From: Utricularia gibba
Lineage: Eukaryota; Streptophyta; Magnoliopsida; Lamiales; Lentibulariaceae
Length of the DNA stretch: 64,000 nt
Reading direction: 5' to 3'
NCBI GenBank assembly: GCA_002189035.1
Contig: NEEC01000016.1
Coordinates: forward strand, 2,255,001 to 2,319,000
The position numbers were made by a program, and so were the translations under genes. Positions 4,350 to 63,707 of this stretch are shown here, piece by piece (the stretch's first letter is position 1; each line of letters starts with the position of its first letter). The notes below the pieces were generated by a model that ran no database searches, was not told where the DNA came from, and worked only from the letters and a program-made list of their open reading frames with translations.

Positions 4350-5371
4350 AATTTCCTTCGAGCAATACAGCATAGGTCGCAACACAAATCCCAAGGAGCC
4401 GAATATGAACAGTGTAGTGGTAGAGGAGGAGGCAGAAGTCTGAAAAGGAGTACACAAAAAATCCAAGGAAGAGAAAAAGAGGAATCTTGGATAAAAAAGG
4501 AGGACAAGATGAGAGAGAAAAAGATCTTCCCCATTGGAGACTCATGACATTTTTTCCGGAGAAGGATTTGGGGGGAGGGGGGGGGAGGAAGGGGGACGAC
4601 GACCCTAAAGAACCAGTTTCTCTTTGAAGATTTATTTTCGTTCTTGATGTATACTGTTCCTAGCTAAGACTAGTTTTAGATTTACTGCGTGAACAATTTG
4701 TCTTTTCTATTTCTGTTATGCACTGCTTATTGTTGTTTAACTTTGAGACCAGAATGTTACTTAGGATATACTATGAAAACGTTTTCCTTTCCGTTGTTAT
4801 GAGTGGCTAAGCACTTAGGGGTGCCTTGGGGTGAAAGGGGGAAAGATGTGCTAATCAATCTTTAGACCTAATCAACCATAACTCATGTCACTTTCTTAAC
4901 AAACTAGGATAGACCAAGGAGGGGGAAGTAGTGAAACCCAACTTACCAACCCTAATTACAAGTAGACAAAAGATTAGGGGGAAAATAAAAATCCGGGTAA
5001 ACCTAGATTTTTGTGTGTTAGTTGTATGATTTATGGTTTGCGTGAGCTTGTTTAGTGATAAGCATACATCCCCTAGGAGTCCCAAGGCATCACCCATTTC
5101 ATCTTAAAAACAACCGAGTTCCAAAACTTGTTACTTTTCTTTACTATATTTTATCACAACTTTGCCTTGGTCCTAGTTAAGACCAAATCTATTAATGTGA
5201 CACTTATTTCATGCATTGACTTTCACATAACAAGCACCTATCTCCTTGTGTTCGACCTTAGTCCACTATGCTTATTTTTTACATATGATTTGAGGTGAAT
5301 TAGGTTTATAAATTTTATTTGATAGAAGAGATTTGCAAATTAACGACTTTGCACTAATTTTTCATTTATCA
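4350..5371 (+). repeat. 5' LTR (family A), missing its first part
   Basis: It aligns along its length with the complete solo LTR at 31488-32638, from CGAGCAATRCAG to the terminal TTTATCA. The start of the LTR (TGATAACACATA in other copies) is missing. The copy carries a G-run at 4570-4595 that is not present in the solo copy. Confidence 0.85.
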
Positions 5372-5374
5372 AAT

Positions 5375-14752: not shown

Positions 14753-15694
14753 TACTATCCTACAACAACACTAGACTTGTCCTCAAGTCTAAAACAGAAA
14801 AAAGAACAAAGACTGCCTAAAACTGAGTTTGATGAGGCAAAGAAAAGGTCTCCGATCATGCCATCCATGTAATGAGTGAAGATAAGATATAGCAAGTGCG
14901 GGTTAGAAAAATTTCACTCAAGTACAAATAATAGAGGTTACTTGCATGCTTCAAGTGTTCAAAAATCACTTATGCGCTAGTCTCTTGGAGATCAGCACTA
15001 GGTTCTACGGGTAGTAGGGCCCTCGTTATAGAGGTTTCATATGCACAGGGTCGCTATGGGTAGAGCTATGCCAGGCATGGCAAGCATGCTAGGCATGTGG
15101 CCGTGGCTCGTGGGTTTGTGTAGAGCACATAGAGGTTAAGAGCATCCATGGGAATGCAACACACGCGCTGCGGGAGGTGTGGCATGCATGGCAAGATGAG
15201 TTGCACGGGGTGCATAGAGGTTGATGTGGTGTGCGAGTGAGAGTAGGGTAGGTGGAGACGAGGTGTCAAGTGAGAGCTTGGCGGTTGAGAGGTACTTGGG
15301 CATTGGACGGCCAAGAGGAGGCTTCATTTACCATGGGAGTCGGATGGAGGTTGAGTCAAGGAACGGTTGGGTAATGAGAGTGGGTTCCATGATTGGGAGT
15401 CTACTAGAGTGTGCTGGAATTTGTGGCAGAATTGTCGAGATTGATGCCTTACCTTCTCTACAAGGTGAAGGTGTGGGATGGCATTGATGACCTAGGGAAT
15501 AATGATGAGTGATGGGTGGCAACGTAGCGTATGGGTTAAGATGGCAGGGGTGCCTTGAGTATGAGTTCGAGGATGAGGCCTACCCATCTTTTGCGTTTCA
15601 GTCTAGTGTGAACTGGCCTATAAGCCTTTTTGTAGACTTCTTTTTACTTAGGCTATGAGCAGTACAACGTTGAATAGTTTAGAGGTTATGTCTT
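14753..15694 (-). mobile_element. internal non-coding remnant of the family-B element
   Basis: No protein is recognised. The stretch 15000-15560 is clearly G-rich for this neighbourhood and has many GCATG/CATGC words. Frames in it (15066-15314 minus, 15221-15487 plus) show no known domain. The element is interrupted at 15695 by the family-A LTR, and 24599-24770 after that LTR is probably its continuation. Confidence 0.5.
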
Positions 15695-16856
15695 TGATAA
15701 ACGAAAAAGTTTGCAATGTCATTAAGATTGCAAATTCTTCCATCAAATAAATTTATAAACTTAATTCACATCCAATCATACAACAAATATGAGCATAGTA
15801 GACTAAGGTCGAACACAATGAGCTATGTGCTTGGTTTGTGAAGGTTGATGCAGGCTGTTTTTGTCACATTTGAAAGATTTAGTTGAAGTTAGGAATAATG
15901 CAAGTCTCTGATAATAGACAGTAAAGAAATAGCAGAAAAATGTGACTACTAACTAGAATAAGCTAATTTAATGTCTGGAGGCTTTTGAGAGTGACATGAT
16001 AATTGATACACTTAACCATCCAACTTAATGATCATTCATCTAACAATACAAGGATTCAAGTCTACCCAAACCCTTGATTTTTGTAACTTTTGGCCTACCT
16101 CTAGTTTGGTTGTTTATGATGAACATAACCACTTCCCCCTCATGGGTATAGCCTGATTTCATAAGGAAATGGCATGGTTATCGAGCTAGTGTAGTCTAAC
16201 AAACAATAATCATGTATACTTTCTTCTAGCCTAAGGAATTACATGTATTTAGCCACTCATGTTGAAGGTAAATAAAACTAGAACATAAAACATCATCTGC
16301 ATCGTATCCATATCACAGTTTGATAACTAAGAAACAAACAAGAACCAAATGTAAAAAGTTGAAGCAGAAAGCTAAAGAAAATGTCACAAGGTATTCCTAA
16401 CTGGGCATAATGTTCTTGAGAAACAAAAGGCAATTTTCATATGTAAGCTTCGTTCTTGGGTCGTCTTCTTCATTCTTCCTCCTAAGGGCACGTTTGGTCA
16501 CAGGTCTGAATTAATAGGGGTTAGAATTACTAAGTTTTAGAATTGAGTTTAAATTTATCTCAATTTAGATAAAAACGCATTTGGTAGTAGTGTTTACTTA
16601 AACCCTGATTTATAGTGTGATTTGTTTTTCATTTACCCCCCAAATAACTTTTAACCTTGGTTTATAGTGTAATTATATCAAAAAGATCTTTTACCTATTT
16701 CACCCCCCCCCCCCCAATAACTAATTTGCCTCCTTTTTTTCATTTACCGCTCTTATACCTATTATATCAAAAAACTCTTTTTTCCACACTATGGTCTTCG
16801 AATTTCGAATCTCTTGCAGGTTTTCACATCTTGATACAGATTCTTCTTGAAAATCA

Positions 16857-31263: not shown

Positions 31264-33811
31264 TGATAGCACACAAATTTTCCTAAGTTTATAATATGAA
31301 ATTATAATTTTTTAGTTGTTTATTTCATAGTTGTAACTATTTTTGAATAATTTAGTTAACATATGAACTTTATGTACAAATGGACTAAATCGTTTGATTT
31401 AACCCATTCTATGTTACAAATGTGTTTTAAGTCTAGCAGCAAATCACAAAAATCAGGAAAGAAGACAAAAATTTTGTGCAAGGAGCATGATAACACATAT
31501 TTTTGAGTGATTGAATGTATGGAAAAGTTTCATATTGTGCTACAAAAATTTAGTTTTATATTTTTGAGCATAAATACCGCAATTGTGTTATTTTAGTCTT
31601 AGTTGGGACTAAATCTACGATTTAGTCTCAACCTTCTAATAGTTTTATTCGAGCAATGCAGTGCATGTCGCAACACGAATCCCAAGAAGCCGAATATGCA
31701 CAGTGTAGTGGCAGAAGATGAGTCCAAAAGTTTGAAAAGTGGTACACACAAAATCTAAGGAGGAAAAAAGGAGATTTTGGATAAAAAGGAAGGAAAGATG
31801 AGAGAGATCTCACTTTGGAGACTCACGACAAGTTTCTGGAGATTTTTCTGGAGGAAGAAGAAGGAGGGGAACAACGAACCAGAAGAACACAGCTTCTCTT
31901 TGAGAATTTATTTTCGTTCTTGATCTTTACTGTTCCTAGCTAAGACTAGATTTGGATTTCCTGCATGAACAAATTGTCTTTTCCACTTCTGTTGGATATT
32001 GCTTGTTGTTGTTTAGCTTTAAAGCAAGGATGTTGTTTAGGATATGCTATAAAAATGTTTTCCCTTACCTTATCATGAGTGGCTAAGCACTTAGGGGGGT
32101 GCCTTGGGATAAAAAGGGGAGAAATATGCTAATCCATTCATAGACCTAATAAACCATAAGTCACACCATTTCCTTAATAAACTAGGATAGATCTAGGAGG
32201 GGGAAGTAGTGAAACCCAACTTAACAACCCTAATTAGAGGTAGACCAAAGATTAGGGGCAAAACAAGAATCCGGGTAGACCTAGATCTTGTAAGTTAGTT
32301 GTATGGCTTATAATTTATGTGAGTTTATTTAGTAATAGGCATACATTCCCTAGGAGTCCTAAGGCATCACCCATCCATTTCAGAAACTACCGAATTCCAA
32401 AACTTGTTGCTTTTCCTTACTGCATTCCATCGTAATTCTGTTTTATTCCTAGTTAAGACTAATTTTACCAACGAGACACTGATTTCATGCATTAACTATC
32501 ACATAGCAAGCACTTGCTCTTCGTGTTCGACCCTAATCACTAGGCTCATAATTGTTTTATGCTTGAATGTGTGTTAGGTTATAAATTTATTTGATAAGAA
32601 AGTTTACATTTACGACGTGTGAATTTTTTCGTTTATCAGAGCAACTTAGCATATGTGCAACATAATAGAGGGGACAATGCATGTACTATCATGACAGGAT
32701 TTTGCGAGTCAAAGGCATGAGAAGAAAGGATTGTCATAAATTCGTACTTGCTTTGTGAAATGAAGAAAATATTTTTCTTGCGAGGAGAGAGAATAGGCAT
32801 AGCTTCGGGAGCTTCAGCAGCAGCAAGACAAAGGGGGCTTCTCCTCTAGCATGACGAACACTATACTAGAGGGAAGAACAAGAGCAATTTTCTAGAGAAG
32901 AACCTCTAATGTGAAGAACGAACACCAAGACCCTGTCCAGTACTACTGTTTCAGACTGTGAACAGTAGCAGACGGAAATCAAAACCAATTTTGCTTTAGT
33001 TTCGTTTGTTGAACATTTTTCGTTTATGTGACCAATTTTTTCACGATGTCTTTGACATTTTAACTGCTTTATCTCAATGCTATCATGTTTTACCTTCTAT
33101 ACATGAATAGCTAAACTTTAGCCGATGCCTTAAGAAATAGAATGGTAATGTGGGAGCTAGAGTTTATAATATGATTTGTCATTATATCTTAGCATTTATT
33201 CTATCATTTCATGAGTAGACCAAAGAGGGGAAATAAGTAGCTCCGCAACTCAGATGCTTGATTTAGAGGTAAACCAACAAATCAAGGCGGCAACAGTAGG
33301 TATTAGTCTAACGTAGAACTAATAGAATCAGGTAGAACTAGTTCTATATACTTTGCATATGGGTATATCTTATTGAGAAGTTGGTGATGATATTGAGGGA
33401 CTATCTTAACCAAAAATATGATAAATGACTTGGGTAGATCTAAGTTATTTGAAGTTGTGAGTATAAAAACTTTTTAAATTAAATTAGAGACCTTAGTACC
33501 ACATCACCTGCACACCCATAAGGATTTTAATAATACTTTGTACTAGAACCAGTATCTGTTATTTCCAGCGTTAAGACTTGAATTTGTTTATTGAACTTGC
33601 TTACTATTATTAGTATGGGCTTAAACTAAGGACCACTATTTCCGAAATCTGGATCTGCTGAAACACATAGCAAACACAAGCACTTTGTGATCGACCTTGA
33701 GTTCCATTACATTTTGTGTTTACTTTTATTTTGTGAGGATTAGGGATTACAAATTTATTTGATACAAAAATTTCTATTTTTGCAACGACATTAGTAAATT
33801 TTTGTTTATCA
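31264..33811 (+). repeat. solo LTR, family E, interrupted by a family-A solo LTR
   Basis: Starts TGATAGCACACAAATTTTCC and ends TTTTTGTTTATCA. The 5-bp flanks are identical: ATTCA at 31259-31263 and ATTCA at 33812-33816. With the inserted LTR and its duplication removed the length is about 1.39 kb. Ends and 3' portion (CACTTTGTGATCGACC, AAATTTATTTGATA) are related to family A. A partial copy lies at 54718-55005. Confidence 0.9.
31488..32638 (+). repeat. solo LTR, family A, 1151 bp, complete
   Basis: Starts TGATAACACATATTTTTGAG and ends TTTTTTCGTTTATCA. Flanks GAGCA at 31483-31487 and GAGCA at 32639-32643 are identical. It serves as the reference for the other family-A copies (4350-5371, 15695-24598, 34212-34925, 55299-56471). 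The copy at 4350-5371 is followed by a primer-binding site, which shows that this is the LTR of an Athila-like element. Confidence 0.95.
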
Positions 33812-34211
33812 ATTCAATTTCTATAAATTATTTAAAAATAAGTAACATATCATCTTGAGCATTATATCAACATTTTCGTGAAGATGAAACATCATGAACT
33901 TTGGAATGTGTTGTGTTACATTTTAGACATTGGAAATTTTTGAAATTTGTTGTTGAAATTCACTATTTTTAGTATTACACCAAATACATCAACTATTTCT
34001 AGTCTCTATAAATAGTGCCTCGACTTCAACCATTTCAATTATCTACCATGAATTAAAATAATTTGGAAGACTATCAACATTTCATCAAACTCATCAATAT
34101 CTTCTTAGAAATGAATAACACAAGCTTAATAAATGTAAATAAATCAAAATATAAAAAATCATCATATTAATATCAATTAGAGTATAACATTATAATTTGT
34201 AAAACATACAT
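33812..34211. other. intergenic; plant-type TATA motif
   Basis: CTCTATAAATAGTGCC at 34002-34017 is a strong plant TATA context. No open gene follows before the reverse LTR at 34212, so it may be a promoter cut from its gene or transposon. Confidence 0.35.
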
Positions 34212-34925
34212 TGATAACGAAAAATCTACACACGTCGTAAATATGCAAACTCTTCGATTAAATAAATTTATAAACCTAATACACATTCAAATATAATACA
34301 ATTATAAACATAGTGTTTAGAGTCGAACACGAAGAGCAAGTGCTTGTGAGTATCGATGTATGCAATCATTGTCATGTTGATAGCTTTAGTCTAAACTAGG
34401 ATCAAGGTATATTTACGATGAAATATAGTAAAGAAAAAAACAAACTTTTAAACTCAATTGTATCTAAGATGAGGTAGGTGGTGCCTTGGGGCTCCTAAGG
34501 TTAATATGTAAGTTGCTATAACTATTCCTCTAAAACCATAGATCATTCACATAACAAGCAAAGGTCTAAGTTTACCCAAACCTTTGTTTTCCGTAATTTT
34601 TGGTCTACCTCTAATAGGGTTGCTCTTGTGAGTTTCACTACTTCCCTCTCTTGGATCTCTACTGTTTTGTAAGGAAATGATGTAATACTTGATTTATTTG
34701 GTTTAGTAAACACTAAACTTCTTAAACTCTTTACCCCAAGTCACCACTAAGTGCTTTAGCTACTCATGATATGGGAAAAAAAAGCGTTTTCATAACATGT
34801 CCTAAGCAACATTCGTTTCTCGAAGTTAAACAACAGCAAATAGTACATAATAGAAATATAAAGGATAAATTGTTCATGCAGTAAAATTAGAACTTTTCTT
34901 AGCTAGGAATAGTATTCTTTAAGAG
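34212..34925 (-). repeat. LTR, family A, reverse orientation, truncated
   Basis: Starts TGATAACGAAAAATC and follows the reverse of the reference LTR (TAGGGTTGCTCTTGTGAG..., CTTAGCTAGGAATAG) until about 34925, where the first 400 bases or so of the LTR are missing. MULE sequence follows. Confidence 0.75.
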
Positions 34926-34933
34926 CGATTATC

Positions 34934-37400: not shown

Positions 37401-37469
37401 GACCCCTACGCGAAAAAGTCGAGAGTGATGATGGCAGAAAAGAAACCCCGAGAACCCCCTAGACAAAGA

Positions 37470-38530
37470 TTGACAATGGAGGAAAATGGAGGATGTGCAT
37501 TGACTTCACCGACCTCAACGCCTGCTGTGAAAGGGACCCTTATCCTTTGCCAAAGATTGACAAGCTAGTAGACGCCATTGCTGGATCCCGATTCCTGAGC
37601 ACCATGGATGCCTATTCGGGATACCACCAAATTTTCATTACCGAGAGAGACCAACCGAAAACCACCTTCTACACCAAGGATGGGGTTTACTGTTACGTGG
37701 CCATGCCCTTCGGTTCAAAGAATGCTGGGGCGACTTATCAGAGGTTGGTAAATAAAATATTATGTTCTGAAATCGGTACCTCGATGGAGGTATATGTGGA
37801 CGATATGATCGTAAAATCTATGAATGAAGAAGACCACTTAGCGTATTTGAATTCTTGTTTCTCTTTGTGCCGGTCATACGGGTTAAAACTCAACCCACTG
37901 AAATGTTGCTTTGGGATGCGAAGTGGAACATTCCTGGGGCATTACGTATCAGAGAGAGGAATCAAGACTGACCCCGAGAAGATTAAGGCAATATGCAAAA
38001 TGCAACCCTGAAGGACAATCAAGGAGTACCAGAGCCTCATGGGTAAATTGGCTGCCCTTAGCCGTTTCATATCTCGATCAGCTGATAAGTCGGCATCCTT
38101 CTTCAAGGTCTTGCGAAAGGGAAATGCTCTAGAATGGAAAAAGGATTGCCGGCTTGCCTTTGAAAAACTCAAGGAATATCTCTCATCACCCCCGCTTCTT
38201 GTGGCTCCGAGAGCAGGAGTGCCTTTAGGACTATATCTGTCTATATCGCCCATTGTAGTCAGCGCAGTCTTGATAACCATCTTGGCAGATAATCACCTTC
38301 CGGTGTATTATGTGAGCAAGCTTCTGTTATCGGCCGAAACATGTTATTCGGTGACAGAAAAATTCATCTTGGCTCTGAAGATGACAGCCACAAAGCTAAG
38401 GTCATATTTCCAAGATCTGCACATCGTGGTATTCACCAATCAGCCCCTGAAGAATATCCTATCTCGACCAGAGATTTCCGGAAGGGTTGCCAAATGGGCG
38501 GTCGAATTGAGTACAATGGATATTCAGTGA
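37470..38530 (+). pseudogene. Tat reverse transcriptase and RNase H
   Basis: The N-terminal part of the polymerase is deleted; the domain begins at GKWRMCIDFTDLN (about 37485). It keeps FLSTMDAYSGYHQI, TTFYTKDGVYCYVAMPFGSK, MEVYVDDMIVKS (active site YVDD, about 37785-37820) and LKLNPLKCCFGM. A TGA at 38009-38011 (probably from TGG Trp) separates the thumb and connection (SLMGKLAALSRFISRSADKS). RNase H continues to 38530 with SAETCYSVTEKFILAL and RVAKWAVELSTMDIQ. Of the coding parts this is the least damaged. Confidence 0.9.
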
Positions 38531-39734
38531 CCTTGCGAGCCGTGAATTATATTACCCAGCAACAAGGAAATGATATCTCTCCACAGCTGAGTCACATCGA
38601 TGATTGGACATCACCCTACATCCAGTATCTACGAAATGGAGAAACACCATCTGATAGATTCAAAGCCCGACAGTTAGAGATTAGAGCAAAGAGATATGCA
38701 CTGGTAAATGGAATTCTCTATCGCATATCCCTCTTGAGGTGTGTCGGGGCAAAGCATTCTCAAGAACTTATAATCGATCTGCATGAAGGGGAATGTGGCA
38801 GCCACGTCGGCATATGATCTTTATGCAGGAAAGCCTTGAGAACCGGGTATTATTGGCCAACTATGGAGTGGGATATTACCGAAATGGTGAAGAAATGCAA
38901 AGTATGTCAATACCATGCGAGTACACCGAGAAAACCAGTAAATAACCTGACCCCTCTTCCATTGTCATGCCCGTTCGATCGATGGGGAGTGGATTTCATG
39001 GGGCCGTTCCCCCAAACCTTGGGCCAAAGGAAATTTGTCATCGTGGGATTCGAGTATTTCCCCAAATGGGTGGAGGCTGAGGCCGTGGAAAAAATATCAG
39101 AGGAGACCACTATTCGATTTCTGTGGAGAAATATCTTCATCCGGTTCGGAATCCCTCAAGAACTTGTGACCGATAATGGAACCCAATTCGTTGGGGAAGA
39201 ATGGAGGCATTCCTGGATAAATATACGGTCAAACACAACTTCACCTCGGTGGATCACCCGTAGAGCAATGGTCTCACAGAGGTAACGAATCGAACGCTCC
39301 GGCTAGGAATGAAGACTAAACTTGAAGATTTTGGAGGATCATGGGCAGATCGCTTCGATGAAGTGCTGTGGTCATATCGCACCACCCCTCGAACCACCAC
39401 GGAAGAATCTCCGTTCTTATTGGTTTACGGTGCAGAAGCCGTATGCCCTATCGAACTAACCCTGAAAAGACATATATAGCCGACTAGGGCTCATCAGAGG
39501 AGAACGGAAAAGAGATATAAAAAGACGGTGTCCCCAAGGGAATTCTCCAAGGGAGATTTGGTGCTCCGAAGCATTCAACCACAAAGACATGTTGGAAAAT
39601 TAGATCGCAAGTGGGAAGGCCCTTATCGGATTTCAAGGGTAATCAGAAAAGGAGCGTATCGTCTAGAACAATTAGACGGCGTGGAATTCTCAAGGTCGTG
39701 GAATGCATCACACCTAAGGGAATTCTATACCTAA
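38531..39734 (+). pseudogene. Tat integrase
   Basis: The HHCC zinc-binding region is at HEGECGSHVGI (38782-38814) through KKCKVCQYHAS (about 38890-38925), split by a stop at 38815. The catalytic core shows DRWGVDFMGPFP and LVTDNGTQF, holding the first two acidic residues. A frameshift near 39200 and a stop at 39260 (CAG to TAG) precede the Glu region (QSNGLTEVTNRT, read around the stop). The C-terminal part is FSKGDLVLRSIQP and ...SWNASHLREFYT, stop at 39732-39734. About 60 bases present in the other copy (ADLRKLELELLEEK) are deleted near 39490. Confidence 0.88.
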
Positions 39735-40549
39735 CTGGCTCAATGTCAATCTCCATCACAGGATTGCACAGAATTCGGTATTCTCTCCCTCAAAACACTC
39801 AAGCATAAGCCCAGGCAGACCGTGAAAGATCTAAACCACAAGCCCTGGCCAAGCAACGCGAACCCAGGCACATCCCCCAAAATGGCATCCCTTGCGGGAT
39901 ACGTCAAACCAACTCGGGATCTCCCCGATACATATACATGTGATCTCCCAAAAACCAGGCATAAGTCGATGACAAGAATAAGCCCTGGTATAATTCGGGC
40001 ATTGGTTCCCGTAAACCGCACGCGTAAGCCCCGAAAAGCCCTTAAGTTTTGACCTTATTGTCGAAATCTCAAGATGACAAGTGCACCCAAAGAAAATCCA
40101 CCCATGTTCAAAACAATGGGGTTCGGCCAAAAGAGGGCCCTTCCCGATTGGGGAAGTCGCTCAACCCATGAGGGGTTCCGACCTACTTCTTTAGCAGCGG
40201 TTCATCACGCATGAGGAAATACTAAGACAAACAAAAATCAAAAAGCCCAAACAAAGGTTTGGCAAAGAGACACCCACCCTCGGATCACAAAAGCATAGGC
40301 GAACCTTCCAAGCCTAAACACGTGATAGACATAACAAACCAACTTGGGGCTTCCCCCGAAATGTGATATCATCAAAGGCAAAAATGATGCGCAAACAGTG
40401 GAGTAAATCAGAAGGAAATCCCGAACCGGGATATCAAAAATGTTCAAGAAGCCCTACAGCAGGGGAAAATACACCAAGTGGAAAAAGTCACTAAAGTGCT
40501 GGAGGAGATGGGGGATTAATGGGAGGATTGACAGAGGAACCGGTATGTT

Positions 40550-42020
40550 GCTCCATTCTGGCTCTCAACTTGGAATCATTCTCTCGCTCTATCCTCGCTC
40601 GAATCAGTGCAATCAGCCGCTCTCGATCAGCTTCGAACCCGAACTCTGGGGCCTAGAAAGTATCTACGATAACATCAAGCATGTTCTCATCCTTCGTCAA
40701 GGGGTTTACCCTGTTGAAGCGTAGATCCATGATTGAAAGCCCGAATTCCCGGCTGAACTGTCGCCTCTGACGGTACAGAAGTAAGCCGATTAAGTCTCCT
40801 GCATAGATATCGGAGAGTTCGGCAAAACAGGCCGAGTTAACAAAATCATCCAGAAGACCCTGCCGAGATGCTTGTTGATCAAGCAATTCGGCCTCTAGTG
40901 CCGAGATGCGGTCCCTGGAATGCTCTAACTCCGCTTCTGCCTCCTCAAATCAGACTTTGAGGCCTTCTCTCTCCGATTTAGCTTCGTCAACCACCTTTCC
41001 CATTTCCTCGACCACATTCCGCAATTCTTCCTCCTGGTGAGCGCGTTTCCCTAGAACGATCTTCAGCGAACTCCCCTCCTCCTCCAACAACTTTATCTGG
41101 GCATCTTGAGGCACAACCTAGGCTTGAAGTCAAGAGACTACCTCCGACTGGGAACCAATCTCTCTAACCACTCTCCATCCAAGAGTTAAAGCCTGAAGGA
41201 ATATTGTCGAGTCAAGAACCGACTACTTAGAATTTAGAAGAGGAAACGGGATGCGTACCTGCCAGATCCCTTCAAGTACCGTTTCCGATCAAACATCCAA
41301 GGTACTAGGCATAGCTCCATCCAGGATTCTCCTTAGTTCAGCTGGAACTGAAGGTTGGGGAGCATCGGGTTATCTCTTACTTCCACAAGGGTTGAATCCC
41401 TCTGTATCTCAATTGGGGGAGCTGATGTCGAAGCACCAGCCGAAAAGAATCTCGCATCAGGAATGGGAGCATCACTGAGATCGAGTGATGGAGGAATTTT
41501 CTCTTTCCCTTTTCCGGCCTAAGGATGGGGAGTCAACTCCCAAGTCTCGGAGACTTCTACTACTGGATCTTCCCCCGAGGAGAGATCGGTGGCGTCTGGC
41601 TGAGTTCCAAACGTATCAATCCGAAAAAGATTATAAACGGGAATTCACAGTAACTGTTAGATAGAAGAAAGGCCTGTGCAGGGGAGGACACCTCGGGTTC
41701 CTGCGCCCTCTACATCTCGGCAGAGAACCGCGCCATCACCGAATCCTCTAGGGAGTTTCTTCGAGCCATCTCTTCAGCTGAAAACGGAAGTAGGAAAAGT
41801 AATAAGGCATAATGCCGATTCTGACCCTCTTCTTTTTCTTGGGGGCCTCGGTTCGAACAGGTGGGGGATCGGGGATGAAGCCGAAACAAGAGGAAGTGAC
41901 GGAGTGGGGCCGAGAGGAAAGTTTCTCGAATCGGCGCCGTCGAAAGAAATGATATCGGGCCAATGGGGATCTCGAGAACGACCGATAATACTCGATCTTT
42001 TCAGGGATTCACCCGAAAAC
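40550..42020 (-). pseudogene. antisense extra gene of the Tat element: spliced coiled-coil protein, copy 1
   Basis: On the minus strand, going leftward: an exon with MARRNSLEDSVMARFSAEM after a TTTTCAG acceptor (about 41770-41700); an exon ending before the donor GTACGCAT (about 41470-41262); and a coiled-coil exon (41130-40550) reading IKLLEEEGSSLKIVLGKR, EEELRNVVEEMGKVVDEAKS, DRISALEAELLDQQASRQG, FVNSACFAELSDIYAGDLIG, LLLYRQRRQFSREFGLSI, KDENMLDVI and ERLIALIRARIEREND. The same protein, in the same order and with matching splice sites, is present in the copy at 61590-62990. A TGA at about 40950 and a TAG at about 40655 break this copy. No enzyme motif was seen; the function is unknown. Confidence 0.75.
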
Positions 42021-42627
42021 ATCAAGGCACGAGACTCGTACTGGATTGAGCCTCGACTAAGCCTCTCGTAAAGGACCTCACGGGATTTGGAAGAAGATTG
42101 GTATGTGCCGAAGAGCTTAACTCTAAATGGGCTCGGAGGATCGATTGGGAAATTCCATCGAAAACTCGAAGGGGGTGCTACCTATACAAATGATGACCAC
42201 CAATCGTGGTGAGTATCAGGGGCTTTAACAATGAAGTTGGGGTTACCTTCGAATCGGCGAAATTGAAAGTGAGATCGGCCATCCATCGGGGACTTGGCTT
42301 TACGAACGGCTATGGAATTCGGGGGAATAGAGAAGGTAGTAAAGCAGAATATGGAATAGAAAAGGAAAGTAGTAAAGCAGAATATGAAATTCGGGGCGAG
42401 ACAGTAAATCGGGATTGCAAAGATATAGAGAAAACGGACTATTAAAGGATGAAGAGGGAAGCGTAAACTGCTTTCGAAATAATCAAGCTGAATTAGGAGA
42501 CTGAGTACCGAATGCGAAGGGAGGGGATGTTTAGTTCACTAGATCTCCTACCCATTTTCAAAAAAAAATGAAAGAAGCCCAAAACCCTAGAACGAGGCAG
42601 GATTCAGGAAGGGTGAAGGACTTAGAA

Positions 42628-43208
42628 TGACAAGGGGGACCTGTCAAAAATCCCAGAAGACCGAACGGAAAAGACGAAGAACCGAATGATACTTAGAAAA
42701 TTGGCGGTTTCCGACAGATATCGCGACAATCGAGCGGCAGATGAGTGCAACGGAGCGCGGAGGGCACAAAACTCTTGCAGGCAACAGAGAGGGCAAAGGA
42801 AAGAACTGACGCGAAGGGCACTTATTTATATGGGAAAGGTTCGGGAGACGAAGTGTCGTGACGTTTGAGGTACCCATAAAGCAACCGACATTTGCAGATG
42901 TCATGATTCGGTCAGATTGAACCCTTCTATAAATAGAAGGAACTATGACAAAAAGGGGGTTGGACACAAAAAGAAGGATTCTTCAACTTGTATTCTCTTC
43001 TTCACCTTCTCCGTCTAGTGAAAACCTTTTCCGATGAGCTCCGGTAGCTCCGCGGTTTTTCCGCTTTCCGGCGGTTTCCACGTAAAAATCTTTGCTCATT
43101 TTTACTTCAATTGAACCAACCGTGAAAAACACAACTAAGTGCGACATTCTCGATCACACCTGTCACCTTAAATCGGCCTCCCACCGGATACCGATTTTAC
43201 CCGTAACA
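42628..43208 (+). repeat. 3' LTR of the Tat element, family F
   Basis: Starts TGACAAGGGGG and ends ACCCGTAACA. The right half aligns with the solo LTR at 50702-51226 (GGTTTTTCCGC, CGGTGGTTTCCA-like blocks, ATACCGATTTT). A TATA box TATAAATA is at 42928-42935. The left half has diverged. Sequence before it (39735-42627) is the element's 3' non-coding region apart from the antisense gene. Confidence 0.82.
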
Positions 43209-43544: not shown

Positions 43545-46438
43545 CCCAGCCCGGCCCTAAATTAAAGAGCTCCCGCTAAAAATCGGGCTAAGGTCGGACT
43601 GAAGCGCGATTACATATATTACTATTGGCATGGCCCTACCTTGATTATTGGTTGGTCCGGGCTTGGTCGGGCCGGCCCACGGGCTTACCGTACAATACAT
43701 AAAATATTTTATAAATTATTCACTATTAATATTAATATTCATTGAATACTTTATATAAAATAAATTAAAATTAATATATGAATTCTCAATTCATATAACT
43801 TATTCAAAAAATAACATAATCCATGATAACATAATTAAAATTATCCTAAACCAAAAAAATGATAACATTATATCAAAATATCAATCATTATTTGAATCTT
43901 GTGTATATGTTTGAGTATCTTCCATCTCCATATCTTCATCTATTTCAATAAAACATATAAATTCAAAATATATTATTAAAACCAATATGCACAATTAATA
44001 AAAAATAAATATTACATTACCTTAAGTATCAAATTCCTTAAATCCATGTAACCAATTACGTGCACAAATAAGAGATTGCACCGTATTCGGAAGTAATCTA
44101 CTTCTATACTTACTCAAAATGTGACTTCCAATACTAAAAGTGGACTCTGAAGCAATTGTAGTTATGGGAATACTCAAAATATCTTTTGCCATCATTGATA
44201 AATTAGGAGAATGATAACTGTTCTTAAAAAATCTAGAACATTCATATCAGAATCATCATCTCCATTCTCCATATCCAAATATATATAAAGTTCACATTTA
44301 CCCTTTCTTAAAAGTTGTTGCTTCATTTCTTTGCGATAATCCTACAATTGTACAAAGAAAAAAGTATGCATATTATAAAAAATATTATACTAAATTAAAT
44401 ATATTAAGGTAAAAAATCAAGCTTACCTCAAGAAAAAGTTTAGAAGAAGATGTAGTTGAGCCTTTTAACTTTGAGCATTCATGTGCATATGAACTGGAAT
44501 CTTTCAACATAATTACACTAGATTGATCAGATAATATCCACATTTGTTCATAAGCATGAAATAATCTTCTCAATACTATTTTAACTATCTACTTTCTCTT
44601 CATAATTATAAGGATCAAGTTTTTCATAACAATATCTTAGAAATTCCAATTTTGTATTTGGATCAAGAACCATCCAAATGCAATAGTAATAGAATACTCA
44701 TCCCAATACTTCTCAATTTTCTCTTTCATTGCTAATATCATTGTTTTTATTACTTCATCTTTGCAACTTCAAAGTTCTTTAAGCTTCAATTCAATCATTG
44801 CAACCTGTATAAAATACAAGTTGGAAGTGGGATACCATGATCCTAATATCAAGTTTGTAATCTCATAAAATAGTCCCAATATATCAGAAATCTTCATTGC
44901 TCTCTCTCATTCATCTTTGGTAAAACTAATAAGAGAATTACCAGTACTATAGTATAATGCAGTGATTGCAAGACGATACTTTAAGACAGTTTGTAACATC
45001 AAATAAGTAGAATTCCATCTATTAGGTACATCTAACTTTAAAAACCCCCACTAACATCTTCCAAGTGCTCATCCCTGATATATTTTTCAAATTCTCTCAT
45101 TCTACCTTGAGAAGATCTAACATATTTAACACAATCTCCAATTTTTTTCAAAGCAATATCTATCACTTTCAATCCTTCATAAACAATCAAATTCAAGATA
45201 TGTGCATAGCATCTTATATGAAAAAAAATCACCATCACATAATAACCCATTCTGCATTTGAAACCTTTCTTTTAAAATTCTGACCATACTGTCATTGGAA
45301 GTAGCATTATCTAGTGTGATTGAAAAGATTTTTAAATCTATTCGCCAATCTTTCAATACTCCATATGGTTTACCCGCTAATAACTCTTCAGTATGTGGAC
45401 CATCCAATTCCACAAATACAAGCAATTTAGAGTTCACTTTCTAATTTTCATCAACATAATGAGTAGTCATAGTCATATACCTTTTAATAGTAACAACTGT
45501 CCAAGTATTTGATGTCAAAGAAAGTCTTCCAAAAATAGAGGACAATAAAGATGTCAATCTTTCCTTCTCATTAGCATATATTTTCATACAATCAACTCTT
45601 GCCATAATTCTACTAATAGATCTAAAATCATGATTTAGAATTCTATTTGCAGCATTAACTTCTTCATATTCATCATAAGCAAATGGAAGATCATGCATGA
45701 TAATTGCTCTTGCTACTGAATCTCAAAATTAATTATGATCAAATTTCGCTTTTTTAATCAAAGTAGTTTGACCACTAAGTAAAGAACTTACATCATGAAA
45801 TTTTGGACACATTAAACAACTTTGAGAATGCCTTAATAAGTGAGATGTACCTGATTTGTCACCACAAGTCAATATTTTCTTGCAATAATTGCACTTGCAC
45901 ATTTCTACACCATTAACTTTTCCAATCTTTTCAAAATGATGCCATACTTCAGACTTGGGCTTCTTAGATAATGGAATAGTATCACTGACATCTTTTGAAT
46001 CCTTTCCAATAGAAGATGTAGGAGATGGTAAAGATGATCGTAATATTTGCCAATCGCAACTATGTTCTTCAATATTATTTATATCCATCCTAACATGTAT
46101 AAATAAACATATAAAAATGATAACAAAAATAAAGACGATATCAAAACTAGAATCATAAGATAAGTCTATTGAATGCATATCAAAAAAATTTGTACTAAAT
46201 CAATTGCTTTATGGAGGCTGCCAATGCGTTTTCTGAAGGTTTAGAATACTAAATGAGATTATTTGGATGCCTAAAACCCTAACCCGCATAGGGCCTTAGG
46301 CCCATCACGCTTTTCGGGCCCTAAACCCAATGAGCCCTAAGGGCTTCAGGCTTTGGGTCCCAAAAGCCCGATCAAGTTTCAGGTCATCAATATTTAGGCC
46401 CAAGCCCATGGACTTGGGCCTAGAGTTTCATCCCTATG
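43545..46438 (-). mobile_element. hAT element (hAT-3)
   Basis: An Ac-like transposase runs on the minus strand between GC-rich ends full of GGGCC/GGCCC words (43545-43700 and 46270-46430), set in very AT-rich DNA. The right end reads CATCCCTA with a perfect 9-bp inverted repeat (AGGCCCAAG, 46396-46421) just inside. The left end and the 8-bp target duplication were not resolved. Confidence 0.75.
44025..46088 (-). pseudogene. hAT transposase (Ac/RICESLEEPER type), broken
   Basis: Begins MDINNIEEHSCDWQ at 46088. The BED zinc finger is intact: EVWHHFEKI, CKCNYCKKILTCGDKSGTSH and LLRHSQSC. The catalytic domain follows: SLTSNTWTVVTIKRYMTMTT, VELDGPHTEELLAGKPYG, ITLDNATSNDSMV and CYAHILNLIVYEGLKVID. 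Near 44160-44030 the dimerisation domain reads [20 protein letters not shown] and [19 protein letters not shown]. Order and completeness are good, and this is the best-preserved DNA transposase in the window, but it needs several frame changes and has stops (for example between 45040 and 44580). Confidence 0.87.
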
Positions 46439-50701: not shown

Positions 50702-51226
50702 TGATGGGGTATAAATTGTTCTCTGAAAAGGCTGCCGAAAGGAGCTATGGGGGGATAGCGCCAGCCGACAGACCGATATGTGTCAGAGATTTGACAGCAG
50801 TGACCGTATAGCGTAATCTGAAAAGCGGCCGAATCATAGCAGAACAGGCGGCGATCATCTGAAAAGTAAGGTCACCGTACAAGTACAAAAAGCAACTGAC
50901 ACCTGCAGAAGGGAGGAGGTGGCCGGATCGACCTTTTCTATAAATAGGAGAAGTTATGAAGAAAAAAGGGTTGGACCCTAAGCCTTCCAACTGGTATCAT
51001 TTCTTCACCACCATCGTCTAGTAGAAATCTTCTCTGGCGAGCCCTGACAGCTCTGTGGTTTTTCCGCCTTGCGGTGGTTTCCATGTAAAACATCTCCGCC
51101 CACTTTCATTTCATTAGATCAAACTGAACGGATCACGAGAAGAAGCATATAAAGAAGCGACATTTCTGATCGTATCCATAACCCGAAAATCGGCCCAACC
51201 CCGTATACCGATTTTCTCCTATAACA
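50702..51226 (+). repeat. solo LTR of the Tat element, family F, 525 bp
   Basis: Starts TGATGGGGTATAAATTG and ends CTCCTATAACA. Flanks CACAC at 50697-50701 and CACAC at 51227-51231 are identical. TATA box TATAAATA at 50939-50946. It lies inside the internal region of the family-C element. The minus-strand frame 50990-50745 is a shadow. Confidence 0.92.
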
Positions 51227-52639: not shown

Positions 52640-53881
52640 CCTCAACAAATTTTAAATATTTAAAACGTAAAACACCAAAAAGCGTAGTACGAGTATCGAT
52701 CTCAAGGAATTGTTTTTCATGAAAAGTGTTTTGTAAAGACCTTTCACAAAATGTCATGGTTTTGCAAAATGTGGTTTTTAAGATGCACAAAGAAAAGTTA
52801 CAACCTAAGTGATGGGCCTTGACTACGGGACGCAGTTCCTGCGAATAAGATTCCATCTCCTTCCTTTGTCTATCCTCGCTTCGGTTTTCACTGATTTCTT
52901 CCGAATAGCTGGTTATAGGAGCAAGGAATAGTCTACTCTCCCTTACACTCTGATTGACAAGGAGGCACGGGAATAGCCTCATGTTATTTCCCCTTGGACG
53001 ATTAGGAAGACAAGAGGATTGCCTTCGATTGCCTTCATAACCGAATTGCACGCGTGTGCCCAGCTGTTGCCAATGGCCAGTGGCAGGTCTAAGGTCACAA
53101 CCTGTATATTGTCGCGGTACCTAGGCCACAAACAATCCGCTACATCCCTCGAATCGGCAGGGTTGGAGTTGGTGCTCTTCTCCTTGATCTTCACCAAAAT
53201 CCGCGAGGAGTGGCCTGCTACTCATGGACCTTGACTAAGAGTCATTATAGAAAGACTACAAAGAACCAAGTGTATTGCTCAAGACTTGGAAGGAAATTTC
53301 ATCTACTCCCAGAAACTAAAGAGTTTTAGCCACAAAGGGCCATCAAAACAGAAATGAAATTGGAAACTAAATGTTCTTCCTCCTTGGAGAGGAGGAAGAA
53401 CCTAAAAGTTGTAAGTACAAGAGAAATTGTTTAAAAAAAGTCCAAAACTAAGTGCTCCAAGTGACTTTTATATCTCTCCCCACGTGTATTAATTCATCTG
53501 GGTCCCCTTCCCATCATTCCTTCTATCTTGCATGCTCCAGTAGCTTTCCTTTGCGTATAAGTTAGCGCCCAATCATTGCTGCAGACTCTGACATGCCGTA
53601 AGTCAGGAGCCTTGACCGGTGTTAGTTTTCCACCCATAATCGCTCCAAGTCGCGTACAAAGCACGAAAAGTCAGACTCTGACCACCTACAATACTCCTGC
53701 AACACTCCTTACATGTCTCGGTCAAAGTGTGAGCAAAAAGACATAAAATATATAAAAAATAGGAAAATAGGAATTTTCTAATAAAAATCAAATACTTAAT
53801 AATAAGACTCCTATTTGGGCGACTTAGCAATTAATTAATACATAATAATACTAATAATTAACTAGAAAATGACACTTAACA
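52640..53881 (-). repeat. LTR, family D, reverse orientation (3' LTR)
   Basis: On the minus strand the LTR begins TGTTAAGTGTCATTTTC, directly after a purine-rich tract AAGTGTGGGGGAATA (53896-53882), the polypurine primer for plus-strand synthesis. It aligns with 10020-11505 (reverse) and 58186-59205 (forward). The left end is not exactly defined. The 219-residue minus-strand frame 53051-52392 lies within it. Confidence 0.82.
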
Positions 53882-55298: not shown

Positions 55299-56471
55299 TG
55301 ATAAACGAAAATTTATGCAAATCATTAAAATTGCAAATTCACTTATCAAATTAATTTTATAAACCTAATTCACAACCAATCATACAAAAAATATGAACAT
55401 AATGGTTCAGGGTTGAACAGAAGAGCCACGTGTTTACCACGTAAAGGTTGATGCATGCTGGTTTTTGTAACGGTTGGAAATTAAGTCTAAGCTAGGACTA
55501 ATAGTTTCACAATAATATGCAGAAAGACAGTAAACGGGTAAAAGTAGATCTTTATTTAAAATCGATAAAGGTGATCTTTGGGACTTGTAGGGGCTGCATG
55601 CTCATCACTAAAATAATCTCATCTAAACTACAAATCAAGCATCCAACAAGAAAAAGTTTAGGTTTACCCAAACTCTTGTTTTCCTTTAATCTTTAGTCTA
55701 CCTTTAGTTAGGATTGCTTAGGATGAGTGTCACTACCTCTACCTCTTAAATCTATGCTGGTTTGTTAAAGAAGTGGTTGATTTATGACTAACAAGATTAA
55801 AAGAATGATTTGCATATTCTCCCTTTTAGTCCCAAGGCACCTCTAGTTGCTTAGTTATTTATACTAAAAGAAAATAAAACACTTTCATAACACAGCGTAA
55901 ACATCATCCATGTTTCAGAGTTGGACAACCAAAAATAAACAATAATAGAAACAAAAATCATAAGTAGTTTGTGGTGATAGCTAAAACTACTCCTGGATAG
56001 GAGTAGTACTCTTGAGAAGAAAATCTCCAAGTGTAGTTGAGTTCTTCATCGTCTTCCTTCTTCCTCATGGTTCTTCTACAATTTCCTAATAGATCCCTCT
56101 CTCCAAAATTGTTTGTCATGTTCTTCAAAGTGTGGAGATATTTTTTTTTTCCTCATTATGTCAAAAATCTACTTTTTCTTTCACATTGAAATTCGATGTC
56201 TTATTTTTTCAGCTTTTGTCCCTACCTTCTGTCACTTCATTGTTCTCTTTTGGCTCCTTGAGATTTAGGCTGCTAAAATGTGTTGTATTGCTCAAGAGAA
56301 TAATTAGGACAAAGATTGGAACTAAATGCATGTTTCACTCTCAATTAGGAATAAAATACGCAAATAGTGGTGCTAGTCACCAAAATATAGAAATACATAA
56401 TGAAATTTGAGTTTTATAACAAAATATTAATTATTTTTCAATCATTAAATACTCAAAAATATGTGTTATCA
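55299..56471 (-). repeat. LTR, family A, reverse orientation, full length
   Basis: Starts TGATAAACGAAAATTT and ends AAATATGTGTTATCA; 1173 bp. It aligns with the reverse of the reference LTR end to end. Flanks are GAAAG and AAAAA, which agree at three of five positions, so this is probably an old solo LTR with a decayed duplication. The + frame 56132-56410 is not a gene. Confidence 0.85.
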
Positions 56472-58185: not shown

Positions 58186-59205
58186 TGTTAAGTGTCATTT
58201 TCTAGTTAATTATTAGGTATTATTATGTGTAATTATGTATGAAGTCGCCCAAATTAGGAGTCTTATTATTAAGTATTTGATTTTTACTAGAAAATTCCTA
58301 TTTTTCCATTTTGTGTATATTTTATGTCTTTTTTCTCACATTTTGACCGAGACATGTCAGGAGACTCTAAGTATATGTTGCAGGAGTATTGCAGGTGGTC
58401 AGACTCTGAGTTTTTGTGCCTTATACGCGAGTTGGAATGATTGTGGGCGGAAGACTTACACTGGTCAAGGCCCATCACTTACGGCATGTCAGATTTTGAA
58501 GCAATGATTGGACGCAAACTTGCACGCAAAGAAAGTCTAGTGGCGTACACAAGACAGAAGGAATGATAGGAAGGAGACCCAAAGGAGTTAATGCACATGG
58601 GAAGTCATATAAAAGCCACTTGGAGCACTTAGTTTCGATATTCTCTTCGCACTTTTGAACAATTTCTCTTGTACTTAGAACTTTTGAGTTCTTCCTCCTC
58701 TCAAGGAGGAAGAACACTTAGTTTCTTTTCGTTTCTGTTTCCATGGCCCTTTTGGGCTAAAACCTTTAGTTTCTGGGAAGTAGATGAAGTTTCCTTCTAA
58801 GTCCTGAGCAATACACTCGGTTCTTTGCTGAATTGATTTCGGATTCCGCATACTTCCACGCGCCTTGTTGCAGTCTTTCTGTAACGACTCTTAGTCAAGG
58901 TCCATGAGTAGCAGGCCACTCCTCACGGATTTTAGTGAAGATCAAGGTGAAGAGCACCAACTCCAACCCTGCCGGTTCGAGGGAAGTAGCAGATTGATTG
59001 TGGCCTAAGTACCGCGACAATGGACAGGTTGTGACCTTGGACCTACCATTGGCCATTGGCAACAGCTGAGCACACGCGTACAATTCGGTTTTGAAGGCAA
59101 TCAAAGGCAATCCTCTTGTCTTCCTAATCGTCCAAGGGGGGATCACATGAGGCTATTCCCATGCCTCCTTTTCAATCAGAGTGTAAGGGAGAGTATACTA
59201 TTCCA
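58186..59205 (+). repeat. LTR, family D, forward orientation, 3'-truncated
   Basis: Starts TGTTAAGTGTCATTTTCTAG and follows the reverse complement of 53881-52935 closely, including GGACCTTGACTAAGAG read in reverse, then stops at TATTCC before an A-run. With 52640-53881 it forms an inverted pair about 4.3 kb apart. Frames 58235-58507 (+) and 59146-58895 (-) are shadows. Confidence 0.82.
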
Positions 59206-60774: not shown

Positions 60775-61105
60775 CAACGAAGAAGAAAATGCTGATTTAC
60801 GAAAACTGGAGTTGGAGCTATTGGAAGAAAAATGACAAAGTATTTATAGTCGGTAAGGGGCTTATTCGAGAAGAATGGAAAAGGATTATAATAAGTCCGT
60901 TTCCCCAAGAGAATTTTCAAAAGGAGACTTAGTGCTCCGAAGCATTCAACCATAGAGGCATGTGGGCAAATTAGACCGCAATTGGGAAGGCCATTATTGG
61001 ATCTCAAGGATAATAAAAAAAGGAGCATATCGTCTAGAACAACTAGATGGCGTAGAATTTCCAAGGTCATGGAATGCCTTGCATCTGAGGAAATTCTACA
61101 CCTAA
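60775..61105 (+). pseudogene. Tat integrase C-terminal fragment
   Basis: Opens with ADLRKLELELLEEK, a piece that is deleted in the first copy, then after a stop continues KDYNKSVSPREFSKGDLVLR, HVGKLDRNWEGHYWISRI and SWNALHLRKFYT, stop at 61103-61105. This is the tail that follows the integrase core and contacts target DNA. Two stops and a frameshift. Confidence 0.83.
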
Positions 61106-61589
61106 CCAACCCGATATCAATCTCGATCACAAGTTTTCATAGGTTTCGATATTTTCTTCACCAAAACATTCAAGTGGTTATAAATCCCTCCAAAGTGGAG
61201 ATGAGATTACAAAATCGTAAGCCCTGGCTAAGTCATATAAGCCCAAGCAGACCTCTGAAGTCCACGCCCCCTGACGTGCATCGTGAATCATGAGCCCTAG
61301 CCAAGCCATGTAAGCCTAGGCAAATCTCTTAAGTTTCCACCTCTTGGTGAGCGCAGCAAACCAGCTCGGGGCTCCCCCCGAAATATAAAATCCTCAAAAC
61401 CCAGGCACCAGTGATAAGGGTTAGCCCTGGTACAACACGGGCACCAGTTTTCTAAAACCGTTCGCGTAAGCCCTTAAAAGGCCCTTAATTACAAATTTTA
61501 CTGTCGAATCTTGAGACGGCAAGAGCACCCAAAGCAAATCCACCCGTGTTGTTAAAACAATGGGATTCTGGCCAGAAGAGGGCCCATTC

Positions 61590-62990
61590 AGATTGTTAAA
61601 GCAAATCCACCCTTGTTGTTACAACACGGGCACCGCAGCTTGGCATCGTTCTCTCGACCGATCCTTGCCCGAATGAGTGCTATCAGGCGCTCCCAATCCG
61701 CCTTGCTTCCGAATTCGGGAGCTAGACACACGTCTGCGATCACATCCAACATGTTCTCATCCTTCCTCAAGAGATCGATCCTGTCGAAGCGCTGGTCCGT
61801 GATCGACAACCTGAACTCCCAGCTGATTTGACGTCTTTGCCGATACAAGAGAAGGCCAATTAAGTCCCCAGCGTATATATCTGTTAACTCGGAAAAGTAG
61901 GCCGAGTTAACAAAATCGTTGAGAAGCCCCTGCCGAGAAAATTCACAATCATGTAACTCCCTCTCGAGAGCCGAAATGCGATCCTATGCACGCTTCAATT
62001 CCGTTTCAGCCTCTTCAAACCTCACCTAGAGCCTCCTTTTTCCGACTTGGCGTCATCAACTGCCTTCCCTATTTCTTCGACGAGGTTTTGCAACTCTTCT
62101 TCCCGATGAGCACACTTTTCGAGAATACTTCTCAACGAACTTCCCTCCTCGGCCATTGAATTCATCTTTGCGTCTTGGCCCTCAACATGTTTTCGAAGTC
62201 AAAGGATCTCCTATGAATGAGTATCGGCTCCTTTGGCCATCCTCTAGCCAAAAGTCAGAGCCTGAGAAGGGGACACCGAAGAAGGAGCTGAACCATGTAT
62301 AACTCTGAGAAAAGAAGAAAACTTGTACCTGCAAGATCCCTTTCAATATAACTTCCGGCTGAGCGTTCGAAAGACTTGGCGCAGCCTCCTCCAACAACCT
62401 CCTCAATTCGGTCAGAACCGACGATAGAGGAAGCACCGGATCGCCCCTAACCTCTGCATGAGCAGGCTCTCTCAGTACGGCATTAGGGGGCCGAGGTAGA
62501 GGCATCCGCCGAAAAGAGCTCCGCGTTGCGAATCAGAGCTTCATCCGGAACCAGTGAAAGATTGAGTTTCTCTTCCCCTTGTCAGCTAGGAGAGGGGGAG
62601 TCGGCCCTCGAGTCTCAAAAACTTCAACCATTTGATTCCCCTCTGACGGGTGATCGTCAGCATCTGAATGAACTTCTAGGGATCCGATCTAGAAAGAAAG
62701 GTAACAAAGTGAGAATCGGGAACCTATATTCACCAATAACAGAAAACAAACCTACACAAAAGGTGTTGCCTCGGGTTCTTGCATCCTTTGAATCTCGGCA
62801 GAGAAGCAGGCCATGACCAAATCCTCCAGAGCACTTCTTCGGGCCATTTCTTTAGCTGCAACCAAAAATCGGGAAAACAATCACGATTCACCGCGGATGT
62901 TGAAACCTGGGGAAGCAGAGCCTAACTACCGCTTTGCTTCTTAGAGGGTTTATGGGCAAGCGCCTTAACCCTCTTCTTTTTCTTGGGGGC
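61590..62990 (-). pseudogene. antisense extra gene of the Tat element: spliced coiled-coil protein, copy 2
   Basis: Minus strand, going leftward: KKKRVKALAHKPSKK (about 62985-62940); after a TTGGTTGCAG acceptor, an exon with MARRSALEDLVMACFSAE (about 62848-62790); an exon ending VILKGILQ before the donor GTACAAG (about 62505-62332); and the coiled-coil exon (62270-61590) reading MNSMAEEGSSLRSILEKCAH, EEELQNLVEEIGKAVDDAKS, DRISALERELHDCEFSRQGL, FVNSAYFSELTDIYAGDLIG, LLLYRQRRQISWEFRLSI, KDENMLDVIADVCLAPEF and ERLIALIRARIGREND. The last exon is open from 61848 to 61588. Stops near 61995 and 62030 and a frameshift break it. Same protein as at 40550-42020. Function unknown. Confidence 0.75.
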
Positions 62991-63189
62991 CGCAAGTTGA
63001 CCAGTTCGGGGAATCGGAGACCAGGCAGGAACAAGGGAGAGATTAAGGCGACACGTGGTGATGAAATCGGCCTAAATCGGTTTGAGACTTACCCACAGAA
63101 AAGCGATATGCCTGAAGTCGGTATATTAATAATTCTGATTCACCGACTTGCCTTGAAAAGGCCAATATCGGTAAATCAGAGGGGCTGAA

Positions 63190-63707
63190 TGATGGGGTAT
63201 AAATCGAGTGAGGGAAATTGGCTTCTAAAAGATTGCCAAAAGGAGGTCTGATGGGATAATGCTAGCCGACAAACTGATATGTGTCAGAAATCTGACAGCG
63301 ACGGCCATATGGCATAGTCTGAAAAGTAGCCAAATTACGGCAGAGCAAGCGGCCGATATCTGAAGAGTGAGATCACAATGCAGGCGCAGAAAGCAACCGA
63401 CATCTGTAGGATTCAGGACTCAGTTAGATTGACTTCTTCTATAAGTACAGGAAATCACAAAGGGAAAGGGGTTCGATCCTTAACTTCCCCACTTGTATTC
63501 TCTCCCTTCAACTCCATCTAGTGAAGATTATCTCTGGCGAGCTCCAACAGCTTCGTGGTTTTTTCCGTTTTACGACGGTTTCCCCCTAAAAATCTTGCTT
63601 TATCGGAACCCCAAATACCACGCCAATTCAAACCGGGTACACTGCTCCCGGCCACACCCGTAACTCAAAATTCGGCACAACCCTGATACCGATTTTTGCC
63701 CTTAACG
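63190..63707 (+). repeat. 3' LTR of the second Tat copy, family F
   Basis: Starts TGATGGGGTATAAATCG after a purine-rich stretch (CAGAGGGGCTGAA) and ends CCCTTAACG (normally TAACA). Aligns with 50702-51226 over its full length. TATA-like TATAAGTA at 63440-63447. Confidence 0.87.

What the first reader, a model, noticed from the sequence alone, without database searches (positions are those of the whole stretch)
40550..42020. Extra antisense, spliced coiled-coil gene carried by a Tat-type retrotransposon (copy 1)
Seen: on the strand opposite to gag-pol, downstream of the integrase, there are exon-like blocks with matching splice sites and a long heptad-rich protein with a conserved C-terminal domain (AGDLIGLLLYRQRRQ). 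The same blocks in the same order occur in an independent copy at 61590-62990. Known: Tat-lineage elements often have additional ORFs between integrase and 3' LTR, some in antisense. Inference: an element-borne gene, possibly captured from the host, with its own promoter near the 3' LTR, transcribed towards gag-pol. The antisense transcript could also damp sense expression.
Basis: partly seen in the sequence, partly recalled or inferred. Interest (0 to 1): 0.72.

Follow-up and report, generated by a model that had tools for sequence, protein, structure and literature searches.

The report
Spliced antisense gene in plant retrotransposon
A plant jumping gene of the Retand type carries, on the strand opposite to its main genes, a four-exon gene kept intact by natural selection; antisense genes of this kind are known, but its conserved introns are not described in the papers I could search.

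Summary
Opposite to gag-pol, between integrase and 3' LTR, lies a protein gene with four exons and three short introns (65-73 nt in the reference copy). The two window copies are decayed members of a family with about 120 places in the 100 Mb genome. In other copies it encodes about 677 residues: an N-terminal TRP28 domain (PF04195), a basic nuclear-localisation-like stretch (KKKKRVK...KRQR), a coiled coil and a conserved C-terminal block. Comparison shows real coding and, almost certainly, splicing. dN/dS between subfamilies is 0.13 for exon 4 and 0.13 for TRP28; shifted frames give 1.0-1.8. GT/AG stay conserved in 88-100% of sequences while intron interiors fall to 52-61% pairwise identity. 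A TATA box 263-289 nt upstream of the ATG lies in single-copy internal DNA, not in the LTR, so the gene probably has its own promoter. This is a member of the known class of antisense extra ORFs of Retand elements (Grande gene23, Retand ORF4, legume ORF2). What appears new is the conserved multi-exon structure joining TRP28 and the coiled coil into one product. Capture from the host has no support. Likely role (inferred): a nuclear, DNA-contacting, multimerising accessory protein. No RNA data could be examined.

The parts
40491..41192 (-). copy 1, exon 4: coiled coil plus conserved C-terminal block; 4 in-frame stops
   Evidence: alignment to intact-exon copies; dN/dS
41193..41258 (-). copy 1, intron 3; donor CAG|GTACGCAT, acceptor TTCCTTCAG|GC
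41259..41620 (-). copy 1, exon 3; 2 stops, 1 frameshifting indel
41621..41673 (-). copy 1, intron 2; both splice sites degenerate here (GC, GG), GT/AG in most other copies
41674..41777 (-). copy 1, exon 2; 1 stop
41778..41823 (-). copy 1, remainder of intron 1; donor deleted, acceptor TTTTCAG|CTGAAG present
41824..42555 (-). copy 1, exon 1 from ATG (42555): remnant of TRP28, WW motif region and KKKR basic stretch; 1 stop, 4 frameshifting indels
   Evidence: TRP28 in sister copies
42824..42830 (-). copy 1, antisense TATA box (TATAAATA), 275 nt upstream of the ATG: putative promoter of the antisense gene
   Evidence: same region is single-copy per element
42875..43120 (+). copy 1, truncated 3' LTR remnant (71% identical to 50886-51124 and 63387-63596)
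37463..39740 (+). copy 1, pol remnant: RT, RNase H, integrase; no additional RNase H domain seen between RH and INT
61619..62261 (-). copy 2, exon 4, C-terminal end lost
62329..62688 (-). copy 2, exon 3; donor 3 CAG|GTACAAG
62752..62855 (-). copy 2, exon 2; acceptor 1 TTGCAG|CTAAAG
62930..63071 (-). copy 2, 3' part of exon 1 (AAPKKKKRVKALAHKPSKKQ); TRP28 part not recognisable

Best explanation
The feature is the antisense accessory gene (TRP28 type) of a Retand-lineage Ty3/gypsy retrotransposon family. Shown by comparison: it is a four-exon protein gene on the strand opposite to gag-pol, under purifying selection, with conserved splice sites and reading phases; TRP28 and the coiled coil belong to one gene. 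Strongly suggested: it is transcribed from its own TATA promoter, in the internal DNA between the gene and the 3' LTR, towards pol. Inferred: the introns persist because the element's genomic RNA is the opposite strand, on which these sites are not splice sites, so reverse transcription copies them unspliced. Inferred: the protein enters the nucleus by its basic stretch, contacts DNA through TRP28 and oligomerises through the coiled coil. It may regulate transcription of the element or accompany its DNA to the integration site. Antisense RNA could act as well.
For: Gene model of 865, 104, 363 and 702 nt exons with consistent phase and a single premature stop in one natural copy. dN/dS in exon 4 falls from 0.53 between young copies to 0.14 at dS above 0.4, and is 0.13 between subfamilies, against 1.03 and 1.79 in the shifted frames. 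TRP28 region 0.13, exon 3 0.29. The third-position excess in exons 1 and 4 remains without CpG sites. GT/AG in 88-100% of subfamily sequences; only 1 of 52 interior columns of intron 3 is at least 90% conserved. TRP28 over its cut-off next to many copies; 20 TRP28/C-block pairs on the same strand in the right order, most of them 1.5-1.9 kb apart, none on opposite strands. TATA at -263 to -289 in 17 of 20 copies inspected, in DNA found once per element, whereas the LTR probe occurs in pairs about 9.5 kb apart. Heptad periodicity that 0 of 300 shuffles reach. RVT_3 domain between RH and INT. Grande GENE23 is nuclear and has its own promoter (PMC7264820, reporting Gomez-Orte 2013).
Against: No RNA evidence. 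No single inspected copy is free of every defect. Donor 2 is weak in many copies (CCA|GTCTGT). Within the youngest subfamily introns diverge less (0.061) than third codon positions of exons 1 and 4 (0.096-0.118) and no more than some first and second positions, so introns are not a clean neutral yardstick. TATA is not found in several subfamilies. DNA binding and nuclear entry were not tested. The structure model is weak (mean pLDDT 68) and has no match in the PDB.
Confidence: 0.68

Rival explanations
1. The antisense RNA rather than the protein matters: it pairs with genomic RNA and feeds silencing or damps sense expression.
For: Orientation towards pol with a TATA box; proposed as a possibility in PMC7264820.
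Against: Selection acts on codons (dN/dS 0.13), and on splice sites, which an RNA-only role does not need. It may coexist with the protein role.
Confidence: 0.15
2. The protein is structural or assists DNA integration (for example tethers the pre-integration complex to chromatin) rather than regulating transcription.
For: Coiled coil, basic stretch; SMC-like hits of related ORFs (PMC4093653, PMC11963269).
Against: A separate promoter away from gag-pol is less expected for a particle component; no direct evidence either way.
Confidence: 0.3
3. A host gene captured by the element.
For: Introns are typical of host genes.
Against: No Pfam match except TRP28, no PDB relative; the 129 TRP28 and about 120 C-block places are repetitive; the literature finds no TRP28 outside transposable elements (PMC11963269). 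It is found in many diverged subfamilies, so any capture would be ancient.
Confidence: 0.05
4. Chance: exon-like blocks in the antisense of decayed DNA.
For: Both window copies are broken.
Against: Codon-position periodicity, low dN/dS and conserved splice sites across subfamilies.
Confidence: 0.01

Closest known systems
TRP28 (PF04195) antisense ORFs of Retand elements (PMC11963269)
   Same: Position between pol and 3' LTR, antisense orientation, TRP28 domain, LTR spacing of about 9.5 kb
   Different: That survey lists uninterrupted ORFs of 600 nt or more and I saw no mention of introns in the parts read; here TRP28 and the coiled coil are exons of one gene
Grande gene23 (maize), as reported in PMC7264820
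   Same: Antisense, own promoter upstream of the gene, nuclear protein
   Different: Its original paper is not held, so exon structure and sequence similarity could not be compared
ORF2 of legume elements such as pvRetro13 (PMC4093653)
   Same: Antisense, similar product size (211-939 aa listed), SMC-like coiled-coil annotation
   Different: Listed with one ORF2 size per element; the word 'intron' does not occur in the paper
Antisense genes of HTLV retroviruses (HBZ)
   Same: Works alike in outline: antisense gene near the 3' end of a retroelement encoding a nuclear protein
   Different: No homology claimed; the HTLV promoter lies in the 3' LTR (PMC7264820), here the TATA box is internal

Membership tests
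Retand-lineage retrotransposon | Ty3/gypsy pol with RT, RNase H and integrase | tested here: met
   Pfam RVT_1, RT_RNaseH, Integrase_H2C2, rve
Retand-lineage retrotransposon | additional RNase H (aRH) between RH and INT (Ogre and Retand, PMC6317226) | tested here: met
   RVT_3 51.5 bits after RT_RNaseH in a sister copy, integrase zinc-binding domain in the next open frames; not seen in the decayed window copy 1
Retand-lineage retrotransposon | antisense TRP28 ORF between pol and 3' LTR (97% of recent clusters, PMC11963269) | tested here: met
   TRP28 over cut-off upstream of the C block in sister copies; two copies scanned singly fall below the cut-off (22.5 and 14.1 bits)
Retand-lineage retrotransposon | clusters with Retand in an RT phylogeny | not tested
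   no reference RT set at hand
antisense extra ORF class (aORF-3R) | present in most copies and conserved like other element proteins | tested here: met
   many copies with the gene and purifying selection; the share of all copies was not counted
antisense extra ORF class (aORF-3R) | transcribed from its own promoter (Grande) | tested here: inconclusive
   TATA box in 17 of 20 copies inspected, not found in several subfamilies; no RNA data
captured host gene | homologous host gene outside transposable elements | tested here: inconclusive
   none found in Pfam or PDB; no plant proteome available

The most novel reading that the evidence does not exclude
The separate antisense ORFs reported in Retand elements (TRP28 ORFs and 'Smc'-like coiled-coil ORFs) are exons of one ancient spliced gene, encoding a nuclear regulator that acts on the element's own DNA, analogous to HBZ.
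Probability: 0.3. Interest if true: 0.65.

Novelty: new variant of a known kind. Interest (0 to 1): 0.45.

Why it matters
The 2020 review of these genes (PMC7264820) asks researchers to look for antisense and spliced transcripts and says their function is unknown. This family gives exact junctions, a promoter candidate and a protein under selection, so splicing, localisation and function become directly testable. It also warns that surveys based on uninterrupted ORFs may split one gene into pieces.

Tried and rejected
Promoter inside the 3' LTR: first suspected from copy 1, rejected because the region with the TATA box occurs once per element while the LTR probe occurs in pairs; in copy 1 a deletion appears to join internal DNA to the LTR. 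Profile search of the C block in the TRP28 loci L031-L060 gave nothing, because these loci end before the expected distance of about 1.65 kb. Structure prediction of the C block from the two window copies was weak and matched no PDB fold. Exon 1 of copy 2 could not be aligned, so exon 1 comparisons with copy 2 are not used. An integrase dN/dS comparison mixed coding and non-coding DNA and is not used. A frame on the gag-pol strand that shares third positions with the gene shows a mirrored low ratio (0.31-0.46); the annotated frame is lower in each exon tested.

Full report
What is in the window. Copy 1 is a truncated Ty3/gypsy element: pol domains RT, RNase H and integrase on the plus strand at 37463-39740, then about 3 kb ending in a truncated LTR at 42875-43120. 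Copy 2 (60858-63600) holds only the integrase end, the same blocks and an LTR.

The family. The C-terminal DNA block matches 40 scored places and the C-terminal protein block about 120 places in the 100 Mb genome, many with an open frame of 150-260 codons. An internal probe next to the gene occurs once per element, and an LTR probe occurs in pairs, about 8.5-9.6 kb apart in the pairs I noted; in one pair the second LTR is 98% identical to the probe over 251 nt. So these are real elements, some of them fairly young.

The gene. In one natural copy (L016 with L072) four exons of 865, 104, 363 and 702 nt join in phase over introns of 73, 66 and 65 nt; the product has about 677 residues and this copy has one premature stop. 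Order of parts: TRP28, a conserved WW-containing region, a basic stretch KKKKRVKAVAHKPSKRQR at the end of exon 1, a more variable region in exons 2-3, a coiled coil and the C block in exon 4. Heptad periodicity is present only in the first half of exon 4 (p = 0.005; 0 of 300 shuffles with a longer window). TRP28 passes its Pfam cut-off beside at least eight family copies. In 20 pairs of TRP28 and C block within 4 kb, TRP28 comes first on the same strand, mostly 1.5-1.9 kb before the C block; one pair has the reverse order and none is on opposite strands.

Is it coding? Pairwise dN/dS of exon 4 declines with divergence (0.53, 0.35, 0.24, 0.14), as expected if copies drift after insertion but their lineages are selected. 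Between subfamilies the ratio is 0.13, against 1.03 and 1.79 in shifted frames; TRP28 gives 0.13 and exon 3 0.29 (dS is near saturation, so the values are approximate). The annotated frame of exon 4 has 0-2 stops in the sister copies and 9-18 in the other two frames. Removing CpG sites does not remove the third-position excess in exons 1 and 4; in exon 3 of the young subfamily there is none without CpG.

Is it spliced? Across 16-18 usable subfamily sequences donor and acceptor dinucleotides are 88-100% conserved while intron interiors average 52-61% pairwise identity; in intron 3 only 1 of 52 interior columns is at least 90% conserved. Acceptors alternate between CAG and TAG, as selection on splicing would allow. 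This is comparative evidence; no RNA was examined.

Promoter. A TATA box stands 263-289 nt upstream of the ATG in 17 of 20 copies inspected, within two different sequence contexts (TTTCCCGTATAAATAAG and TTCCATTATAAATATCC), and at a similar place in five of the diverged loci of this family. It lies in internal DNA.

Mechanism. Shown: coding, conserved splice sites, one gene, antisense. Suggested: own promoter. Inferred: nuclear entry, DNA contact, oligomerisation and a regulatory or integration-related role. These inferences lean on published work: Grande GENE23 is nuclear and has its own promoter, TRP28 is predicted to bind DNA, and legume ORF2 proteins match SMC (PMC7264820, PMC11963269, PMC4093653). 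Introns can survive in a retrotransposon only if genomic RNA is not spliced there; antisense placement provides that (general logic, not tested here).

Comparison with the known. The element meets the tested Retand features: antisense TRP28 between pol and LTR, and an extra RNase H between RH and INT (PMC6317226, PMC11963269). I found no mention of introns in these antisense ORFs in the papers read, and searches for spliced TRP28 genes found none. Subscription papers, including the gene23 and 2011 extra-ORF papers, could not be read, so priority on introns is not certain. Verdict: a new variant of a known kind.

Noticed in passing
window 52925-53704 and 58376-59204: Pair of long inverted repeats (337 nt at 92% and 260 nt at 83%) about 5 kb apart, possibly a nested or inverted transposon.
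   Followed up: no
window 4638-5372, 15694-16171, 31928-32638, 34211-34928, 55645-56013: A dispersed repeat of up to about 740 nt in both orientations, 68-73% identical to the stretch at 34211-34928.
   Followed up: no
window 50886-51124: Fragment of an LTR related to that of copy 1 (71%), perhaps a solo LTR.
   Followed up: no
window 45729-46199 (-): Open frame that looks like a BED-type zinc finger, perhaps a hAT transposase remnant (from memory, not searched).
   Followed up: no
L095 (C2:2203400-2207100): A far more diverged antisense gene with TRP28 and a C block at about 50% identity, 3 kb apart, apparently with a similar exon order.
   Followed up: partly
genome: About 109 of 129 TRP28 places have no C block of this family nearby, so other antisense TRP28 gene types probably exist in this genome.
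   Followed up: no
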